DNA from: Streptomyces albogriseolus
GTDB taxonomy: Bacteria; Actinomycetota; Actinomycetes; Streptomycetales; Streptomycetaceae
Length of the DNA stretch: 64,000 nt
Assembly: GCA_014650475.1 (NCBI GenBank)
Contig: BMVA01000002.1
Location: 62,001-126,000, forward strand
Direction: 5' to 3'
Shown: positions 43,176 to 50,060 of the stretch, one piece after another
Position numbering within the stretch: the stretch's first letter is position 1
How the letters are laid out: every line of letters starts with the position of its first letter
Notes under the pieces: model-generated
What the model was told of the DNA's origin: nothing
Database searches by the model: none
The model's input: only the letters and a program-made list of their open reading frames with translations
Translations under genes and position numbers: made by a program

Positions 43176-44180
43176 ATGGCATCGACCGCCCGCATCCCCT
43201 CGGCGCCCGCGCCCGGGGACGCCCCCGGGCTCCGTGAACGGGCCCGCGGCGCGCTGCTCGGCCTGGCCGTCGGCGATGCCCTGGGCGCTCCCGCCGAGAA
43301 CATGAAGCCCTCCGAGATCCGCGCGAAGTGGGGCCGCATCACGGGCTACGTGAGCGACCCCCCGGCCGGCACGGACGACACCGAGTACGCGATCTTCTCG
43401 GGTCTGCTCGCCGCCCGGCACGGCTCCGCGCTCACCCCCGCGCACGTCGAGGCGGCCTGGCACGAGTGGATCGCGGACCGCGCCGAGGGCCCCTTCCGCG
43501 GCGCCGGCTTCAGCGAGCGCGGCACCCTGGAGAATCTGCGCCGGGGCCTGGCCGCGCCCATCTCCGCCCAGCACCGGCACGCCTGGAGCGACGGACTGGC
43601 GATGCGGGCGGCGCCGTACGGCGTGCACGCGGCCGGGCGTCCCGACGAGGCGGCCCGGCTCGCGGCGATCGACGGCTCGGTCAGCCACGACGGAGAGGGA
43701 ATCCACGGCGGGCGGGCGGTCGCGGCGGGCGTCGCGGCGGCCATGGCCGGGGCGCCGGTGGTCACGGTCGTGGCCTCGGCGCTGGCGGTGGTCCCGGAGG
43801 ACTCCTGGACCGCCCGCTCGCTGCGCCGTGCGGTGACCGCCGCCCACCGCGGCGAGCGGGCCGTCCGCGCCGCTGTGGTGATCGGCGGCTACCCCTGGAC
43901 CGACCTCGCCCCGGAGGCGGTGGCCCTGGCCTTCGGCGCCTACGCGGCAGCCGACGGCGACTTCGAAGAGGCGGTGCTGACCGCCGTGAACATGGGCCGC
44001 GACGCCGACACCACGGCGGCCGTGGCCGGCGCGCTGGCCGGAGCGACCCAGGGGGTCGCCGCCGTCCCCGAGCACTGGGCCGCGGCCATCACCCCGGCCC
44101 GCGGCACCTGTCTGCCCGCCATGGCCGGCCACCACGTCCTCGACATCGCGGACCTGCTGACCCCGGAGACCCCCACATGA
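43176..44180 (+). CDS. ADP-ribosylglycohydrolase family protein, paralogue A
   Basis: A cytosolic protein of 334 residues in the DraG/ARH family, whose members remove ADP-ribose from proteins, nucleic acids or small molecules using two Mg/Mn ions. The N-terminal helix has LLGLAVGDALGAPAEN, the first metal motif TDDT is at residues 66-69 and the second DADT begins at Asp276, so the whole site is present. ATG 43176 follows AGAGGAG at about 8 nt. It is the first gene of a six-gene operon and overlaps the next gene by 4 nt (ATGA). The exact substrate is unknown. The family also includes enzymes acting on other glycosidic bonds. Confidence 0.88.
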   Translation: MASTARIPSAPAPGDAPGLRERARGALLGLAVGDALGAPAENMKPSEIRAKWGRITGYVSDPPAGTDDTEYAIFSGLLAARHGSALTPAHVEAAWHEWIADRAEGPFRGAGFSERGTLENLRRGLAAPISAQHRHAWSDGLAMRAAPYGVHAAGRPDEAARLAAIDGSVSHDGEGIHGGRAVAAGVAAAMAGAPVVTVVASALAVVPEDSWTARSLRRAVTAAHRGERAVRAAVVIGGYPWTDLAPEAVALAFGAYAAADGDFEEAVLTAVNMGRDADTTAAVAGALAGATQGVAAVPEHWAAAITPARGTCLPAMAGHHVLDIADLLTPETPT

Positions 44181-45409
44181 CCTCCACCACCCCCGCACCG
44201 ACCACGGACGACACCCTCACCCCCGCACCCGGGCGGGAGGACCCGGCCCCGGCGCCGCGCGCCCCCGCCGCGCCCGCACCCGCACCCCGTCCGCCCCGCG
44301 CAGCCGTCGAGGGCCTGCTCCTCGGACTCGCCGCCGGGGACGCCGCGGGCTGGCCCGCCGCCCGGCACCGGGCCGCCCGCATGCCCGAGTGGACCCGGCG
44401 TCTCACCCGCGAGCTGGACACCTTCGCGGAGCAGAACGCCACCACCACGCTCCCCGTCCCCATCGCCCTGAACCAGCCCCCCGAGCCGCTCCGCCTCGGC
44501 CCCTCCGACGACGCCGAGTGGGCCGCGTTCGCCGCCGAGGCGGTGCTGCGCGCGGGCGACGACACCGTGCTCGGCGACCTCAGCCGGGAGCGCCGCACCC
44601 GCGCCGCCATCGACCTCACCTGGAACGCGGTCGCGGCCGAGGTCGCCGCCGCCACCGAGCGGGCCCCCGAGACCGAGTCCGCCGTGCTGCCGCTGCGCGC
44701 CCGTATCTCCGTGCGCGCCGGACTCGGCAACCTCGCCACCGGGCTGCGCCCGCCCGCCTCCGGCCACGACAACCCGCACTACTTCGACGACGCGGCCTGC
44801 GTCCGGGCCTGCGTGCTGGCCGTGGCCCACCCCGGCGACCCCCGCGCCGCCGCCGACCTCGCCGAGTTCGACGCCCGCTACACCCAGGACGGCGACGGCG
44901 TGCACGGCGCCCGCGCCATGGCCGCCGCCGTGTCCCTCGCGCTCGCCGGGGCCGACCCGGACGCCTGCGCGGCCGCCGCCTGCGCCGAGCTGCCCGAGGA
45001 CACCGAGATCGGCCGCAACGCCCGGCACGCCCTGGCGCTCGCGGCGGACGCCGGCAGCGCCTTCGCCCTGGTACCGCCGCTGGAGCACCAGATCGTCGAC
45101 CACGTCTACAGCTACGGCGTCGCCGCCGCCGAGACCGTCCCCGTCGCCCTCGCCCTAACCACCGCCGCCCGCGGCCGGATCGCGGAGGCGGTCCCGGCGG
45201 CGGCCTGTCTGTCCCGGGTCGCGGACTCCGCCCCGGCGCTGGCCGGCGCCCTCACCGGCGCGCTGGGCGGGAGCACCGCGATCCCCGCGTCCTGGCGGGA
45301 GAGCTGCCGCACCCTGTCCGGCTGCGTGCTCCCCCGGCTCACCGGGACGGACCTGGTGGAACTCGCCGGGCTGCTGGAAGCCGCCCGACCGACCGCACCC
45401 GGAGGATGA
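44177..45409 (+). CDS. ADP-ribosylglycohydrolase family protein, paralogue B (degenerate site)
   Basis: A 410-residue DraG/ARH paralogue with a Pro/Ala/Thr-rich N-terminal leader of ~40 residues. The start helix GLLLGLAAGDAAGWPAA is recognisable. The first metal motif has become SDDA (residues 110-113), and at the second site the usual DxDT reads VADS, so the first of the two aspartates is a valine. One or both metals may be lost, suggesting a binding or regulatory pseudoenzyme, though residual activity cannot be excluded. It is coupled by ATGA to paralogue A and ends 7 nt before paralogue C. Its low similarity to A and C indicates old divergence rather than a fresh duplication. Confidence 0.8.
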   Translation: MTSTTPAPTTDDTLTPAPGREDPAPAPRAPAAPAPAPRPPRAAVEGLLLGLAAGDAAGWPAARHRAARMPEWTRRLTRELDTFAEQNATTTLPVPIALNQPPEPLRLGPSDDAEWAAFAAEAVLRAGDDTVLGDLSRERRTRAAIDLTWNAVAAEVAAATERAPETESAVLPLRARISVRAGLGNLATGLRPPASGHDNPHYFDDAACVRACVLAVAHPGDPRAAADLAEFDARYTQDGDGVHGARAMAAAVSLALAGADPDACAAAACAELPEDTEIGRNARHALALAADAGSAFALVPPLEHQIVDHVYSYGVAAAETVPVALALTTAARGRIAEAVPAAACLSRVADSAPALAGALTGALGGSTAIPASWRESCRTLSGCVLPRLTGTDLVELAGLLEAARPTAPGG

Positions 45410-45416
45410 TCCCGGC

Positions 45417-46598
45417 ATGACACGCGAAGACACCGGAAGAATCGAAAACATGCCCTCCTTGGACGAACGGGTCACCGGGGCGCTGGTGGGGGCGGCCGTG
45501 GGGGACGCCCTCGGCGGCCCGGTCGAGGGGTACTCCCCCGAGCAGATCGCCGAGCGCCACGGAGGCCGCGTCCACGGGATCGTCGGCCCGTGGCACGGCG
45601 ACGAATGGCGCACGGCCCGGCCGATCGCTCCGTACCACAAGGGCGACGGGCACGTCACCGACGACACCCTGATGACCCATGCGCTGGTCCGGGTGTACGC
45701 GCGGGTCCGCGACCACCTGGACGCCCACGCGATCGCCGACCACCTGGTCCCGGACCTGATGACCAACCCGCGCTGGATCCCGGAGCTGGAGGCGGAGACG
45801 ATCCCGCTGCACCGGATCTTCCTCGCCGAGAAGTGGCTGGTGGCCCGGCTGCACTACGGGCACGTCGACCCGCGCGAGGCGGGCGTCGGCAACATCGTCA
45901 ACTGCGGCGCCGCGATGTACATGGCCCCGGTCGGCCTGGTCAACGCCGCCCACCCGGCCGGCGCGTACGCCGAGGCCCTGGACGTGGCGGGCGCCCACCA
46001 GTCGTCGTACGGCAGGGAGGCGGCCGGGGTGTTCGCCGCGGCCGTGGCGGCGGCCTGCGCGCCGGGCGCGACCCCCGACTCGGTCGTCGCCGCGTGTCTG
46101 TCCCTGGCCAAGGACGGCACCCGGGAAGCGGTCGAGAAGGTCTGCGAGGAGGCGTCAAGGCACACCGACGTCGAGTCGGCGCTGCGCCCGCTGCGCGAGG
46201 CGGTCGCCCCGTACGACACCGTCGGACCCGACTACCGCTCCCCGTCGCTGGGCGCCCGGCGTCCCTCCCGGCTGCACGCGATCGAGGAACTGCCCGTCGC
46301 GCTGGGCATGGTGGTGGCGGCCCGCGGCGACTTCCGGCACGCGGTGCTGGGCGCGGTGAACTACGGCCGTGACTGCGACTCCATCGCCACGATGGCCGGG
46401 GCGGTGACCGGCGCGCTCGGCTCCCCGGTGCCCGAGGAGTGGGCCAAGACCGTGGCGGAGGCCAGCCGCCTCGACCTGTGGGAGCCTGCCGCCGCGCTCA
46501 CCGCGGTGGCCCGCGAGGTCTTCGCCCGGGACGTGGAGCGCCGCCGCGCCCACGAGCGGGCGTTCGCGCGGCTCGGAGGCGCCGGATGCTCCGACTGA
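45417..46598 (+). CDS. ADP-ribosylglycohydrolase family protein, paralogue C
   Basis: A 393-residue DraG/ARH protein and the most canonical of the four. It has VGAAVGDALGGPVEG at about residues 24-38, TDDT at 81-84, and the C-terminal metal motif DCDS starting at Asp319 in NYGRDCDSIATMAGA. A conserved central segment (IVNCGAAMYMAPVGLVNA) lines the ribose site in this subfamily. ATG 45417 has GGAGG 11 nt upstream; an in-frame ATG at 45450 is an alternative that starts just before the first helix. It overlaps the next gene by 13 nt. Activity is likely, but the substrate is unknown. Confidence 0.88.
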   Translation: MTREDTGRIENMPSLDERVTGALVGAAVGDALGGPVEGYSPEQIAERHGGRVHGIVGPWHGDEWRTARPIAPYHKGDGHVTDDTLMTHALVRVYARVRDHLDAHAIADHLVPDLMTNPRWIPELEAETIPLHRIFLAEKWLVARLHYGHVDPREAGVGNIVNCGAAMYMAPVGLVNAAHPAGAYAEALDVAGAHQSSYGREAAGVFAAAVAAACAPGATPDSVVAACLSLAKDGTREAVEKVCEEASRHTDVESALRPLREAVAPYDTVGPDYRSPSLGARRPSRLHAIEELPVALGMVVAARGDFRHAVLGAVNYGRDCDSIATMAGAVTGALGSPVPEEWAKTVAEASRLDLWEPAAALTAVAREVFARDVERRRAHERAFARLGGAGCSD

Positions 46599-47962
46599 CC
46601 TGGGTCCAGCCCGAGGACCTCGTCGGCCACGAGCTGCGCCAGGCCGCGCTGGACGGCCGGGAGGCGTCGGCGGTCGCCGCCCGCTGGCACGCGGCGGGCG
46701 GCCCCCCGGCCCCGCTCACCGCCGGCGCCTCCCCCCGCCCGGTCTCCCGCTACCTCCGTCTGCTGGCCTGCGATCTGCTGGACGAGCTGGCCGAGCTGCC
46801 CAGCACCCTCGCCGACGACGAGCCCTCCGACCTGGCCGCGATCCAGGCGCTGTGCCCCGAGTGGCCCGTCTCCCCCGGCTCCCCGGCCGTCTGGGACGGG
46901 CCCGTGTTCGAGGCGCGGCTCGAGGCGGCCTGGCTCGGCCGGGCGGCGGGCTGTCTGCTGGGCAAGCCGGTGGAGAAGCTGCCCCTCGCCGCCATCCGGG
47001 ACCTGGCCCGCGCCGCCGGCAACTGGCCGCTGAGCGGATGGTTCACCGCCCGGGGCGTCCCCGCCGAGCTGCTGGCCGAGCACCCCTGGAACCGGCGCTC
47101 CGCCGCCACCTCGCTCGCCGAGAACATCGACGGCATGCCCGAGGACGACGACCTCAACTACCCCCTGCTCGCCCTGCTGGTGCTGCGCCGCCACGGCCGC
47201 CGCTTCACCACCGCGGACGTGGCCCGCGTCTGGCTCGACGAGCTGCCCGCGGGCCGCACCTTCACCGCCGAGCGCGTCGCCTACCGCAATCTGCTCTGCG
47301 GACTCGAACCGCCGCTGACCGCCCGCCACCGCAACCCGTTCCGCGAGTGGATCGGCGCCCTGATCCGCGCCGACGTACACGGCTGGACCAACCCCGGCGA
47401 CCCGGGTGCCGCAGCCGAGCAGGCGTACCGGGACGCCGCACTCACCCACACCGCGGGCGGCGTCCACGCGGCCATGTTCACCGCCGCCGTCATCGCCGCC
47501 GCGGCCGGCGGCGAGCGGGACGTGCACACCTGTCTGCGGACCGGCCTCACCGTCGTCCCGCCCCGCTCCCGGCTCGCCCGGGCCGTGCGTCACGCCGTAC
47601 GGCTGGCCCGTGAGCACAGCGACTTCGACACCGTCGTCGACCTGCTGCACGAGACGTACGGCGCCACCCACCACTGGGTGCACGCCGTCCCCAACACCGC
47701 CCTGCTGGCCGCCGCCCTCACCCACGCCGACGGGGACTTCACCGCCTCGATCTGCCGCGCGGTGTCCGGCGGCTGGGACACCGACTCGGTCGGCGCCACC
47801 GCCGGCGGCGTCGCCGGGCTGCTCGCGGGCTCGCCCCGCGCCCTCCCCGAGCGCTGGACGGCCCCGCTGAAGAACCGCCTGTCCACCTCCGTCGGCGACT
47901 TCGACGGCACCGGCTTCGACACCCTGGCCCGTCTCACCCATCTGGAGGCGTCCCGCCCATGA
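46586..47962 (+). CDS. ADP-ribosylglycohydrolase family protein, paralogue D (long N-terminus)
   Basis: A 458-residue member of a divergent DraG/ARH branch. The first ~105 residues are an extra N-terminal region without a recognised domain. The catalytic core starts at EAAWLGRAAGCLLGKPVE. The first metal motif has the branch-specific form EDDD (residues 186-189, followed by LNY) and the second is DTDS from Asp398 in SGGWDTDSVGATAGG, so the site looks complete. ATG 46586 has GGAGG 6 nt upstream and lies inside the end of paralogue C. It is coupled by ATGA to the CoA-transferase gene. Confidence 0.86.
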   Translation: MLRLTWVQPEDLVGHELRQAALDGREASAVAARWHAAGGPPAPLTAGASPRPVSRYLRLLACDLLDELAELPSTLADDEPSDLAAIQALCPEWPVSPGSPAVWDGPVFEARLEAAWLGRAAGCLLGKPVEKLPLAAIRDLARAAGNWPLSGWFTARGVPAELLAEHPWNRRSAATSLAENIDGMPEDDDLNYPLLALLVLRRHGRRFTTADVARVWLDELPAGRTFTAERVAYRNLLCGLEPPLTARHRNPFREWIGALIRADVHGWTNPGDPGAAAEQAYRDAALTHTAGGVHAAMFTAAVIAAAAGGERDVHTCLRTGLTVVPPRSRLARAVRHAVRLAREHSDFDTVVDLLHETYGATHHWVHAVPNTALLAAALTHADGDFTASICRAVSGGWDTDSVGATAGGVAGLLAGSPRALPERWTAPLKNRLSTSVGDFDGTGFDTLARLTHLEASRP

Positions 47963-49179
47963 CACCCCCCGACCCGGCCACCGCCGCCCCCACCGCTCCC
48001 CCGCTGGCCGGCCTGCGCGTCCTGGATCTCGCCACGCTCTTCGCCGGCCCCCTCGCGGCCACCCTCCTCGGCGACTTCGGCGCCGACGTCGTCAAGGTCG
48101 AACACCCCAGGAGACCCGACCCGTCGCGCGGCCACGGCCCGTCCAAGGACGGCGTCGGCCTGTGGTGGAAAGTGCTCGGCCGCAACAAGCGCACCGTCAC
48201 CCTGGACCTGTCCACGCCGGGCGGCCGGGCCACCCTGCTGCGCCTGGTGCGCACCGCCGACGTGGTCGTGGAGAACTTCCGCCCCGGCACCCTGGAGAAG
48301 TGGGACCTGGGCTGGCCCGAGCTGTCCGCCGTCAATCCCCGGCTGGTGCTGGCGCGGGTCACCGGCTTCGGCCAGTTCGGCCCGTACGCGCACCGGCCGG
48401 GCTTCGGCACCCTCGCCGAGGCGATGAGCGGCTTCGCCGCGCTCACCGGCGAACCGGGGGCGGCGCCGACCCTGCCGCCGTTCGGCCTCGCCGACTCGAT
48501 CGCGGGCCTCACCACGGCGTACGCGATCATGACGGCGCTCGCGGCCCGTGACCGCACGGGTGAGGGGCAGGTCGTCGACACGGCGCTGATCGAGCCGATC
48601 CTCGCCGCCCTCGGCCCGCACCCCACCTGGTACGACCAGCTCGGGTACGTCCAGCCGCGCACCGGCAACCGGTCGCAGAACAACGCCCCGCGCGGCACCT
48701 ACCTCACCGCCGACGGCACCTGGGTCGCCGTCTCCACCTCGGCCCAGTCGATCGCCGAGCGGGTGATGGTCCTGGTGGGCCGCCCCGACCTGATCGACGC
48801 GCCCTGGTTCGCCACCGGCGAGGGCCGGGCCCGGCACGCGGACGTGCTGGACGAGGCGGTCGGCGGCTGGATCGCCCGGCACACCCGCGCCGACGTGCTG
48901 GCCGCGTTCGAGAAGGCGGAGGCGGCCGTCGCCCCCGTCCAGGACGTCCGGGACGTCATGGCGGACCCGCAGTACCAGGCCCTCTCCACCATCACCACCG
49001 TGGAGGACCCGGAGCTGGGCCCGCTGCGCATGCAGAACGTGCTGTTCCGGCTCTCCGCCACCCCGGGGTCCATCCGCTGGGCGGGCCGCCCGCACGGCGC
49101 GGACACCGAGGAGGTGCTGACCGGGCTGGGACTCACCCCGGCCGACCTGGCGGAGCTGCGGGCGGAGGGCGCCCTGTGA
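47959..49179 (+). CDS. CaiB/BaiF family (class III) CoA-transferase
   Basis: A 406-residue CoA-transferase of family III, moving CoA between carboxylic acids in the cytosol. The family start is LRVLDLATLFAGPLAATLLGDFGADVVKVEHP in pieces, and the catalytic Asp179 is in FGLADSIAGL. The C-terminal part has the usual VAPVQDVRDVMADPQ segment. The ATG overlaps paralogue D (ATGA) and the stop overlaps the next gene (GTGA). In other organisms such enzymes activate carnitine, formate/oxalate, mesaconate or citramalate. The partner lyase downstream suggests a C4-C5 acid such as citramalate or malate, which is inference. Confidence 0.9.
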   Translation: MTPPDPATAAPTAPPLAGLRVLDLATLFAGPLAATLLGDFGADVVKVEHPRRPDPSRGHGPSKDGVGLWWKVLGRNKRTVTLDLSTPGGRATLLRLVRTADVVVENFRPGTLEKWDLGWPELSAVNPRLVLARVTGFGQFGPYAHRPGFGTLAEAMSGFAALTGEPGAAPTLPPFGLADSIAGLTTAYAIMTALAARDRTGEGQVVDTALIEPILAALGPHPTWYDQLGYVQPRTGNRSQNNAPRGTYLTADGTWVAVSTSAQSIAERVMVLVGRPDLIDAPWFATGEGRARHADVLDEAVGGWIARHTRADVLAAFEKAEAAVAPVQDVRDVMADPQYQALSTITTVEDPELGPLRMQNVLFRLSATPGSIRWAGRPHGADTEEVLTGLGLTPADLAELRAEGAL

Positions 49180-50006
49180 GAAGCGTCCCGCTGACCTGGC
49201 TGTACGCCCCCGGCGACCGCCCCGACGTGGTGGCGAAGGCGCTGGCGGCCGGGGCGGACGTGGTGGTGGTCGACCTGGAGGACGCGGTCGCGCCGGACCG
49301 CAAGGCGTACGCCCGCGCGGCCACCGCCGAGCTGCTGCGCGACCCGCAGCCGGTGCCGGTGCACGTCCGCGTCAACGCCCTCACCGGGCCCTGGGGACCG
49401 GCCGACGTGACGGCGCTGGCCCCCGCGCCGGGTCTGTCGGGGCTGCGGCTGCCGAAGGTGTCCTCACCGTCCGACGTGGTGCGGGTCGCGCGCCGGGCCG
49501 TCTCCGCGCGCGGCGGCTCCCCGCCCCTGTACGCGCTGCTGGAGACCGCCCTGGGCGTCGAGCACGCCCACGCCGTGGCCACCGCGCACCCGGCGCTGCG
49601 CGGGATCACGCTCGGGGAGGCGGACCTGCGGGCCGACCTTGGGGTGCGCGAGGACGCCGGTCTTGACTGGTGCCGGGCGCGGGTGGTGGTCGCGGCGCGC
49701 GCGGCCGGGCTGGCCCCGCCCGCCCAGTCGGTGCACCCGGACATCCGCGACCTCGAGGGCCTGGAGGCGTCGTGCGTGCGCGGGCGCGCCCTGGGATTCC
49801 TGGGCAGGGCGGCGATCCATCCGCGCCAGCTCCCGGTCATCGAGCGGGCCTATCTGCCCACGGAGCGGGAGATCGAGCAGGCGGAGAGGGTCCTCAAGGC
49901 GGCGGCCGCCACGCAGGGCGCGCAGGCGCTGCCCGACGGCACGTTCGTGGACGCGGCGGTGGTGACGGCGGCGCACCGGACGCTGGCACTGGCGCACAAG
50001 CGGTGA
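49176..50006 (+). CDS. HpcH/HpaI aldolase/citrate lyase (CitE-like) family protein
   Basis: A 276-residue CitE-like protein forming the TIM-barrel fold of acyl-CoA lyases. Family motifs are WLYAPGDRPDVVAKALAAGAD in parts, VVDLEDAV (D33/E35/D36 region), Arg65 in HVRVN, the metal-ligand Glu in LLETALGV and the acidic GEADLRADLG. The isolated CitE type lacks the CitD/CitF partners of citrate lyase and usually cleaves malyl-CoA, citramalyl-CoA or acts as a thioesterase. GTG 49176 overlaps the CoA-transferase stop. It ends the operon before a very long hairpin. Confidence 0.9.
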   Translation: MRSVPLTWLYAPGDRPDVVAKALAAGADVVVVDLEDAVAPDRKAYARAATAELLRDPQPVPVHVRVNALTGPWGPADVTALAPAPGLSGLRLPKVSSPSDVVRVARRAVSARGGSPPLYALLETALGVEHAHAVATAHPALRGITLGEADLRADLGVREDAGLDWCRARVVVAARAAGLAPPAQSVHPDIRDLEGLEASCVRGRALGFLGRAAIHPRQLPVIERAYLPTEREIEQAERVLKAAAATQGAQALPDGTFVDAAVVTAAHRTLALAHKR

Positions 50007-50015
50007 CCGGGCCGG

Positions 50016-50060
50016 ACGCGCCGAGGGCGCCCGGGGTCTCCCCGGGCGCCCTCGGCGCGT
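50016..50060. terminator. 21-bp perfect hairpin between the DraG operon and lgt
   Basis: An uninterrupted 21-bp stem starting ACGCGCCGAGG with a 3-nt TCT loop lies 10 nt past the CitE-like stop and 20 nt before the convergent lgt stop. It is the longest perfect hairpin found in the window and surely terminates both units. Confidence 0.95.

What the first reader, a model, noticed from the sequence alone, without database searches (positions are those of the whole stretch)
43176..50006. Six-gene coupled operon of four divergent DraG/ARH paralogues plus CoA-transferase and CitE-like lyase
Four ADP-ribosylglycohydrolase-family genes in a row, all strongly diverged, are joined by 4-13 nt overlaps or a 7-nt gap to a class III CoA-transferase and a CitE/HpcH lyase. 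The unit is closed by a 21-bp hairpin. Overlaps between unlike genes argue for one pathway or complex. A link between removal of ADP-ribose (or another glycosidic substrate) and acyl-CoA chemistry is not explained by any pathway I know. One hypothesis is salvage or detoxification of a nucleoside- or ribose-linked acid: hydrolases free the acid, CaiB activates it, and the lyase cleaves it.
Basis: partly seen in the sequence, partly recalled or inferred. Interest (0 to 1): 0.78.

Follow-up and report, generated by a model that had tools for sequence, protein, structure and literature searches.

The report
Ribose-conjugate breakdown operon using DraG-type hydrolases
Six overlapping genes in a soil Streptomyces look like the remaining core of an operon that imports a ribose-containing compound and breaks it down, which would give enzymes until now read as ADP-ribose signal erasers a quite different, nutritional job.

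Summary
The six genes are real, coupled and conserved. Outside Streptomyces they are the catabolic part of a larger operon: LacI regulator, CUT1-type sugar importer, four DraG-fold proteins (A-D), ribokinase K, CoA-transferase E, CitE-type lyase F. K is near C in 55 of 66 loci and absent from the window. A LacI operator precedes the operon in 58 of 60 loci; in eight Nonomuraea genomes its only three perfect off-operon copies lie at genes of one esterase type. One Streptomyces keeps the whole operon at the window's gltB-VIT/lgt site, so the window holds a reduced version. Best reading: uptake and catabolism of an esterified ribose conjugate; DraG-fold enzymes free ribose, K phosphorylates it, E and F degrade a hydroxy-dicarboxylate part. 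Substrate and activities are inferred. Against a strict link, 21 of 66 loci lack E-F beside the hydrolases, and unlinked Nonomuraea E-F pairs carry no operator. The probable S. coelicolor counterparts SCO2028-2031 are discussed as ADP-ribosylation erasers, but two were inactive on U-ADP-ribose. A new variant of a known kind.

The parts
43176..44180 (+). Gene A, DraG-fold hydrolase, 334 aa; both metal motifs kept (D67 D68 T69; D276 x D278 T279)
   Evidence: PF03747 198 bits; motif residues invariant in 20 aligned rows; DraG 2woe as best solved relative, E 1e-20
44177..45409 (+). Gene B, DraG-fold protein, 410 aa, probably with an altered metal site: first Asp of the C-terminal motif replaced by V, L or T in all rows
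   Evidence: PF03747 117.5 bits; alignment of 16 rows
45417..46598 (+). Gene C, DraG-fold hydrolase, 393 aa; metal motifs kept (T71 D72 D73 T74; D311 x D313 S314, numbering of the first row of alignment A1)
   Evidence: PF03747 164.9 bits; alignment of 7 rows
46586..47962 (+). Gene D, DraG-fold hydrolase with an N-terminal extension of about 110 aa, 458 aa; motifs E186 D187 D188 D189 and D398 T399 D400 S401 invariant
   Evidence: PF03747 166.3 bits; 23 rows; model pLDDT 91.5, best PDB matches DraG and ARH3
47959..47962 (+). D/E junction (ATGA overlap): place where many relatives carry the ribokinase gene K, absent here
   Evidence: close K within 5 kb of C in 74 of 111 Streptomyces genomes that have C
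47959..49179 (+). Gene E, class III (CaiB) CoA-transferase, 406 aa; D179 invariant in 22 rows
   Evidence: PF02515 411 bits
49176..50006 (+). Gene F, CitE/HpcH-type acyl-CoA lyase, 276 aa (GTG start)
   Evidence: PF03328 118.9 bits; nearest NCBIfam model RipC/Ccl 166.4 bits, below its cut-off of 375; 22 rows and solved lyases
50016..50060 (.). 21-bp perfect hairpin between the convergent genes F and lgt; probably a shared terminator
   Evidence: the T-run terminator scan did not list it

Best explanation
The six genes are the remaining core of an operon for uptake and catabolism of a ribose-containing conjugate, not an ADP-ribosylation signalling system. In the complete version an RbsR-like LacI repressor senses the substrate or a product. 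An apparently secreted esterase (in some lineages) works on an extracellular ester, and a CUT1-type ABC importer brings the conjugate in. DraG-fold enzymes (core pair C-D, extra pair A-B, with B perhaps a non-catalytic partner) cleave the ribosyl bond. Ribokinase K makes ribose-5-phosphate. The released acid, probably a small hydroxy-dicarboxylate of the malate/citramalate type, is converted to its CoA thioester by E and split by F into an acyl-CoA and an oxo acid. In the window regulator, importer and K are absent, so a general ribokinase and an unknown uptake route would have to serve. Shown by sequence: gene content, order, conservation, operator. Inferred: every catalytic step, that the sugar is ribose, and that the acid and the sugar come from one molecule.
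For: (1) Operon context: of 80 C-type loci kept, 66 have enough flank; importer genes are near C in 58, K in 55, D in 65, A and B in 59 (never one without the other), E and F in 45 (never one without the other). (2) K passes the curated ribokinase cut-off in the two relatives tested (309.9 and 316.8 against 299.65 bits); the one LacI protein tested scores best against RbsR, below that model's cut-off (194 against 531 bits). (3) Operator G[TG]AAACG[TA]TT[AC]C at the LacI start in 58 of 60 loci, 3 elsewhere in 1.20 Mb of the same loci, two of these on the side of the divergent esterase gene; in 8 Nonomuraea genomes the only three off-operon perfect sites each lie at the same type of esterase gene, and that esterase adjoins the operon in 8 of 80 loci. 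(4) One Streptomyces (L138) holds the whole operon at the same gltB-VIT/lgt site as the window. (5) DraG + ribokinase + CUT1 importer without E-F on Agrobacterium, Mycolicibacterium and Deinococcus plasmids, and DraG + permease + ribokinase in staphylococci (passages of PMC3637587, PMC3321955). (6) E and F resemble succinate-, formyl- and mesaconate-type CoA-transferases and RipC/CitE lyases.
Against: 21 of 66 loci lack E-F beside the hydrolases. In the 8 such genomes searched, E-F pairs exist elsewhere, but E there lies on a separate branch and the pair has no operator. 11 of 66 loci lack K, and 36 of 111 Streptomyces with C, the window included, lack a close K. Two plasmid loci (Pseudochrobactrum, Phyllobacterium) list no ribokinase in the stretch read, in a gene table that is incomplete. 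The window has no importer or regulator beside A and no operator. No equivalog cut-off is passed by A-F. No natural ribose conjugate with such an acid is named here, and no activity was measured.
Confidence: 0.58

Rival explanations
1. ADP-ribosylation reversal: A-D remove ADP-ribose from proteins, nucleic acids or O-acyl-ADP-ribose, as the literature assumes for SCO2028-2031.
For: PF03747 family and kept metal motifs in A, C, D; the S. coelicolor genes are listed as putative ADP-ribosyl hydrolases (passages of PMC9411070 and PMC5087735).
Against: Importer, sugar regulator and ribokinase context; I recognised by eye no ADP-ribosyltransferase, macrodomain or NUDIX gene in the operon loci printed (their flanking genes were not run against a family library); SCO2028 and SCO2030 showed no activity on U-alpha-ADP-ribose (passage of PMC13036486), which is one substrate only.
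Confidence: 0.12
2. Same kind of operon, but the sugar is not ribose: another furanoside or aldose, with K acting as a related kinase.
For: PfkB kinases vary in substrate (general knowledge); the one CUT1 solute-binding protein tested matches carbohydrate binders only weakly; some lineages add a protein with a glycosidase-like barrel, low-confidence model.
Against: K passes the ribokinase equivalog cut-off and scores higher on the two ribokinase models than on the other PfkB models listed; DraG-fold enzymes of known function act on ribosyl bonds (general knowledge).
Confidence: 0.2
3. Two separate functions share one operon: A-D-K use a riboside, while E-F degrade an acid that arrives by another route (for example freed outside by the esterase, or from general dicarboxylate metabolism).
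For: E-F pairs occur without DraG genes beside them, for example next to MmgE/PrpD, cyclase, allantoinase-like and methylisocitrate-lyase-like genes (L146); 21 of 66 C loci lack E-F.
Against: E and F with C and D in 15 of 15 C genomes, in several families and at different chromosomal sites; overlapping reading frames of unlike genes in the window.
Confidence: 0.25
4. Salvage of a modified nucleoside: DraG enzymes split the N-riboside and E-F degrade an acid derived from the base.
For: E. coli yegTUV couples a DraG homologue to a putative nucleoside permease and a sugar kinase (passages of PMC10819704); staphylococci couple one to a cytosine/purine-family permease and ribokinase.
Against: The importer here is of the carbohydrate type by family match, not a nucleoside transporter; no deaminase or ring-opening gene recognised by eye inside the operon loci printed.
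Confidence: 0.15

Closest known systems
DraG (ADP-ribosyl-[dinitrogen reductase] hydrolase) / ARH family, PF03747
   Same: Fold, metal motifs in A, C and D; D model matches DraG 3o5t/2woc and ARH3
   Different: Equivalog cut-off not passed (80.4 against 337 bits for A); four paralogues in a sugar-type operon; B lost one metal-site Asp
E. coli yegTUV, regulated by YegW/GgaR
   Same: DraG homologue + putative nucleoside symporter + putative sugar kinase in one operon (PMC10819704, passages and abstract start)
   Different: Single DraG, GntR-family regulator, no CoA-transferase or lyase in the operon; gene functions stated as unknown
Staphylococcal SERP2216-2218 unit
   Same: DraG homologue + ribokinase + permease (PMC3637587, PMC3321955 passages)
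   Different: Cytosine/purine-family permease, one DraG, no acid arm mentioned
LacI-CUT1-DraG-ribokinase loci of Agrobacterium, Mycolicibacterium and Deinococcus plasmids
   Same: Regulator, importer, C- or D-like DraG, ribokinase
   Different: No E-F listed in the stretches read; in Agrobacterium and Deinococcus a DraG of about 700 aa; own UgpC ATPase listed in two of the three
Itaconate/citramalate degradation (Ict-Ich-Ccl, RipA-C; pathway recalled)
   Same: CaiB- or other CoA-transferase with CitE-type lyase; F's best NCBIfam model is RipC
   Different: Below the RipC cut-off; no hydratase seen in the operon, so E would act on a ready-made hydroxy acid
SCO2028-2031 of S. coelicolor
   Same: Four consecutive DraG/ARH tags two tags after gltB (SCO2026): inferred to be A-D, not checked by sequence
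   Different: In print they are read as ADP-ribosyl hydrolases; the passages seen mention no operon, kinase, CaiB or CitE

Membership tests
PF03747 (ADP_ribosyl_GH) superfamily | Pfam gathering score | tested here: met
   A-D 117.5-198 bits against 26.2
PF03747 (ADP_ribosyl_GH) superfamily | Both binuclear-metal motifs kept (motif roles recalled) | tested here: inconclusive
   Kept in A, C, D; B lacks the first Asp of the C-terminal motif in 16 of 16 rows
Dinitrogenase-reductase DraG (TIGR02662) or Tri1 (NF041672) | Equivalog cut-off | tested here: not met
   Best 80.4 against 337 and 46.6 against 490 bits
ADP-ribosyl hydrolases | Hydrolysis of an ADP-ribosyl bond | not testable with these tools
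   Published: SCO2028 and SCO2030 inactive on U-ADP-ribose (passage)
Class III CoA-transferase (CaiB) | PF02515 and catalytic Asp (role recalled) | tested here: met
   411 bits; D179 invariant in 22 rows and aligned with Asp in two solved relatives
Itaconate-pathway lyase RipC/Ccl | NF038242 equivalog cut-off | tested here: not met
   166.4 against 375 bits
HpcH/CitE acyl-CoA lyase superfamily | PF03328 gathering score | tested here: met
   118.9 against 25 bits; aligned over nearly full length with 8khl, 3qll and 6aq4
Ribokinase (TIGR02152) | Equivalog cut-off, for K of relatives | tested here: met
   309.9 (L047) and 316.8 (L039) against 299.65 bits, the two tested; the window has no K
CUT1 sugar-utilisation operon | SBP, two permeases, LacI regulator with conserved operator | tested here: met
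   In relatives; absent from the window. No ATPase gene recognised by eye in the actinobacterial operon loci

The most novel reading that the evidence does not exclude
A large part of the DraG/ARH superfamily in bacteria may be nutritional ribosidases rather than ADP-ribosylation erasers. This operon would be the most elaborate case seen here: a pathway for a still unknown, esterified conjugate of ribose with a hydroxy-dicarboxylic acid, in which two DraG pairs (C-D and A-B, one member of A-B perhaps non-catalytic) work in sequence.
Probability: 0.33. Interest if true: 0.85.

Novelty: new variant of a known kind. Interest (0 to 1): 0.62.

Why it matters
In S. coelicolor the probable counterparts are counted as evidence for a lively ADP-ribosylation metabolism, and some have been assayed on an ADP-ribosylated substrate. 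The operon context says to test ribosides instead. If right, it gives a candidate function to many unassigned DraG-family proteins (including E. coli YegU and the staphylococcal unit), predicts an undescribed natural ribose conjugate common enough to feed many soil actinobacteria, and names a regulated importer whose ligand can be found directly.

Tried and rejected
Rejected: reading the window's six genes as complete in themselves; relatives show further members. Rejected: using the unlinked Nonomuraea E-F pairs as proof of a link in trans; they lack the operator and their E forms a clade with the E of G037, whose contig carries A- and B-like genes about 8 kb away but no C or D. The looser operator pattern (GKAAACGTTTMC) is not specific: of nine off-operon places looked at, five stand beside another LacI-type gene and four do not; only the perfect GTAAACGTTTAC was used for the regulon statement. 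Inconclusive: the model of the extra FGE/barrel protein is poor (pLDDT 58.4), so its matches to amylase-type barrels, EgtB and FGE are only a hint. Substrate search by analogy (malate glycosides, methanopterin, orotidine, acylated polysaccharides and others, from memory) gave no candidate I would defend. The promoter scan found nothing. K against plasmids at E 1e-40 found only Nonomuraea. Papers (open-access holdings only): searches for ADP-ribosylglycohydrolase with Streptomyces + CoA-transferase + operon, with ribokinase + ABC transporter + gene cluster and with ribokinase + sugar ABC transporter found none; with ribokinase alone 4 papers, of which passages of three were seen and one, PMC3900703, only as a listing; the passages of PMC10434189 show no such unit. 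With Streptomyces and DraG 4 papers were listed (listing and abstract starts only). The 'SCO2028' in PMC5036795 looks like a slip for SCO2038.
Full report
What is there. Six genes run on the + strand from 43176 to 50006 with overlaps of 4, 13, 4 and 4 nt and one gap of 7 nt. Four encode PF03747 (DraG/ARH) proteins, then come a class III CoA-transferase and a CitE/HpcH lyase. A perfect 21-bp hairpin lies between F and the convergent lgt. On the - strand the flanks are gltB and a VIT-like membrane protein upstream, and lgt, a DsbA-like protein, trpA and trpB downstream (names by eye from the translations). The genome has 8.07 Mb, and the nearest E rows in a tree are Streptomyces. It holds eight PF03747 matches, four of them here.

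Conservation. In a sample of 118 genomes of the class, D has a match in 19 (E at most 1e-10) and C in 15 (E at most 1e-15). In all 15 C genomes, window included, D, E and F lie on the same contig within about 8 kb. Six Streptomyces relatives fetched from that sample all show gltB-VIT-A-B-C-D-E-F-lgt-dsbA-trpA-trpB in this order. In the genus, C is present in 111 of 150 genomes (E at most 1e-60).

The missing kinase. In 5 of these 6 Streptomyces relatives an extra gene K sits between D and E; G073, like the window, has none. K passes the curated ribokinase cut-off in the two relatives tested. Over the 150 genomes a close K occurs in 81; 75 of the 111 with C also have it, in 74 within 5 kb of C; 36 do not. 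The window genome has at best a 45% identical kinase elsewhere.

The complete operon. In seven non-Streptomyces genomes of the sample with enough sequence (L045-L049, L050 with L051 as two contigs of one genome, L052) the genes follow two permeases and a CUT1 solute-binding protein; a LacI regulator precedes these in six, and in the seventh (L046) none was called in the 1.6 kb before the permease. Of these 80, 66 have at least 6.5 kb upstream and 7 kb downstream; 14 were left out. Counting matches of at least 35% identity within 9.5 kb of C: D in 65, A in 59, B in 59, K in 55, importer genes in 58, LacI in 57, E in 45, F in 45, an FGE/barrel fusion in 13. A and B never occur apart, nor do E and F. 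The seven loci without A-B are Kribbella, Micromonospora and Microbacteriaceae; all keep C and D. So C-D looks like the core and A-B an added pair. Streptomyces sp. HNM0575 (L138) has the whole operon, regulator and importer included, between VIT and lgt, the site of the window. I infer that the window's version is reduced.

Regulon. A palindrome G[TG]AAACG[TA]TT[AC]C lies between 420 bp before and 30 bp into the LacI match in 58 of the 60 loci that have a LacI match over 45% identity and enough upstream sequence. Outside that stretch it occurs 3 times in 1.20 Mb of the same loci, two of them on the esterase side of the divergent promoter of L068 and L069 and one inside D of L117. In eight Nonomuraea genomes the perfect GTAAACGTTTAC occurs at the operon in all eight and at only three other places. 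All three lie at the same type of gene, a PF00756 esterase with a propeller-repeat tail (two of the three run against Pfam). In two of the three the site is just before a start codon followed by a signal-like stretch (by eye); in the third (L189) the esterase frame begins after the site without that stretch. The same esterase adjoins the operon in 8 of 80 loci, divergent from LacI with operators between them in L068, L069 and L076. In ten of fourteen further genomes the perfect site was found, only at the operon; the other four have only variant sites there. Of nine off-operon places with variant sites, five stand beside another LacI-type gene, so the variants are not counted. The window genome has no GKAAACGTTTMC site.

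The proteins. A, C and D keep both acidic motifs of the family; B lost one Asp of the second motif in 16 of 16 rows. A high-confidence model of D matches DraG and ARH3. E is nearest to succinate-glutarate-, formyl-CoA- and mesaconate-type transferases, below all equivalog cut-offs. F is nearest to RipC/CitE lyases, below their cut-offs. Relatives of E, some with F, stand in other loci: L146 with MmgE/PrpD, cyclase, allantoinase-like and methylisocitrate-lyase-like genes (Pfam and NCBIfam run on seven proteins of L146 and one of L147), and similar-looking genes in L147, L149 and L155 by eye. This suits an acid of the hydroxy-dicarboxylate kind, by inference only.

Results against a strict link. 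21 of 66 loci have no E-F: 19 Nonomuraea, one Marinitenerispora, one Thermoactinospora. Eight Nonomuraea genomes searched all have an E-F pair elsewhere, but its E forms a clade of its own with the E of G037, and it carries no operator. So the acid arm is optional, lineage by lineage. One locus (L119) has E-F without D or K. Of 26 plasmid records with C- or D-like proteins I read five. Importer plus DraG plus ribokinase without E-F is listed for Agrobacterium, Mycolicibacterium and Deinococcus. The Pseudochrobactrum and Phyllobacterium loci list importer and DraG but no ribokinase; that gene table is incomplete.

Literature. Passages of PMC5087735 list SCO2028-2030 and a passage of PMC9411070 lists SCO2028-2031 as uncharacterised DraG/ARH homologues; PMC5087735 takes the number of hydrolases as a sign of lively ADP-ribosylation metabolism. 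gltB is SCO2026 (passage of PMC9282665), so these tags are very probably A-D; this was not checked by sequence. A passage of PMC13036486 reports SCO2028 and SCO2030 as inactive on U-alpha-ADP-ribose. E. coli yegTUV (passages of PMC10819704) and a staphylococcal unit (passages of PMC3637587 and PMC3321955) pair a DraG homologue with a permease and a sugar kinase. In the listings and in passages of nine papers I saw none that draws the ribose-catabolic conclusion; no paper was read whole.

Mechanism and judgement. The most likely mechanism is import of an esterified ribose conjugate, release of ribose by the DraG-fold enzymes, phosphorylation by K, and CoA activation plus retro-Claisen-type cleavage of the acid by E and F. 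Gene content, order and the operator are shown; every catalytic step and the substrate are inferred. I rate the operon a new variant of a known kind (a sugar-utilisation operon) with an unexpected enzyme family as its glycosidases.

Noticed in passing
L059:8300-10851 (G000:C6); D-like gene with glycerate kinase also in L063, L064, L065: A stand-alone D-like DraG paralogue (44-48% to D) lies beside a glycerate-kinase-like gene; in L059, L063 and L064 also beside NUDIX- and Sir2-like genes, and L064 has a macrodomain-like gene about 6 kb away (names by eye). This could fit O-acetyl-ADP-ribose turnover.
   Followed up: partly
L060:8776-10526 (G000:C21): Another DraG-family gene overlaps a NUDIX-like gene by 4 nt in the script's gene calls (name by eye).
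   Followed up: no
L047:6523-8400 and 13 of 66 operon loci: An FGE/EgtB-like domain fused to a glycosidase-like barrel sits between K and E (Pfam PF03781; low-confidence model).
   Followed up: partly
L146, L147, L149, L155: Close E relatives (some with F) in loci with MmgE/PrpD, cyclase, allantoinase-like and FAD-reductase genes: an apparent dicarboxylate or cyclic-imide pathway of its own.
   Followed up: partly
L208:5937, L209:6055, L211:6044: In three Actinacidiphila genomes an operator-like GTAAACGTTTCC precedes a secreted-looking protein of about 1080-1100 aa with an F5/8-type start (by eye); possibly another regulon member.
   Followed up: no
window 44177-45409 (gene B): B accompanies A in 59 of 59 loci that have either and lacks one metal-site Asp in 16 of 16 rows; an A-B heteromer with a non-catalytic partner is a testable guess.
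   Followed up: partly
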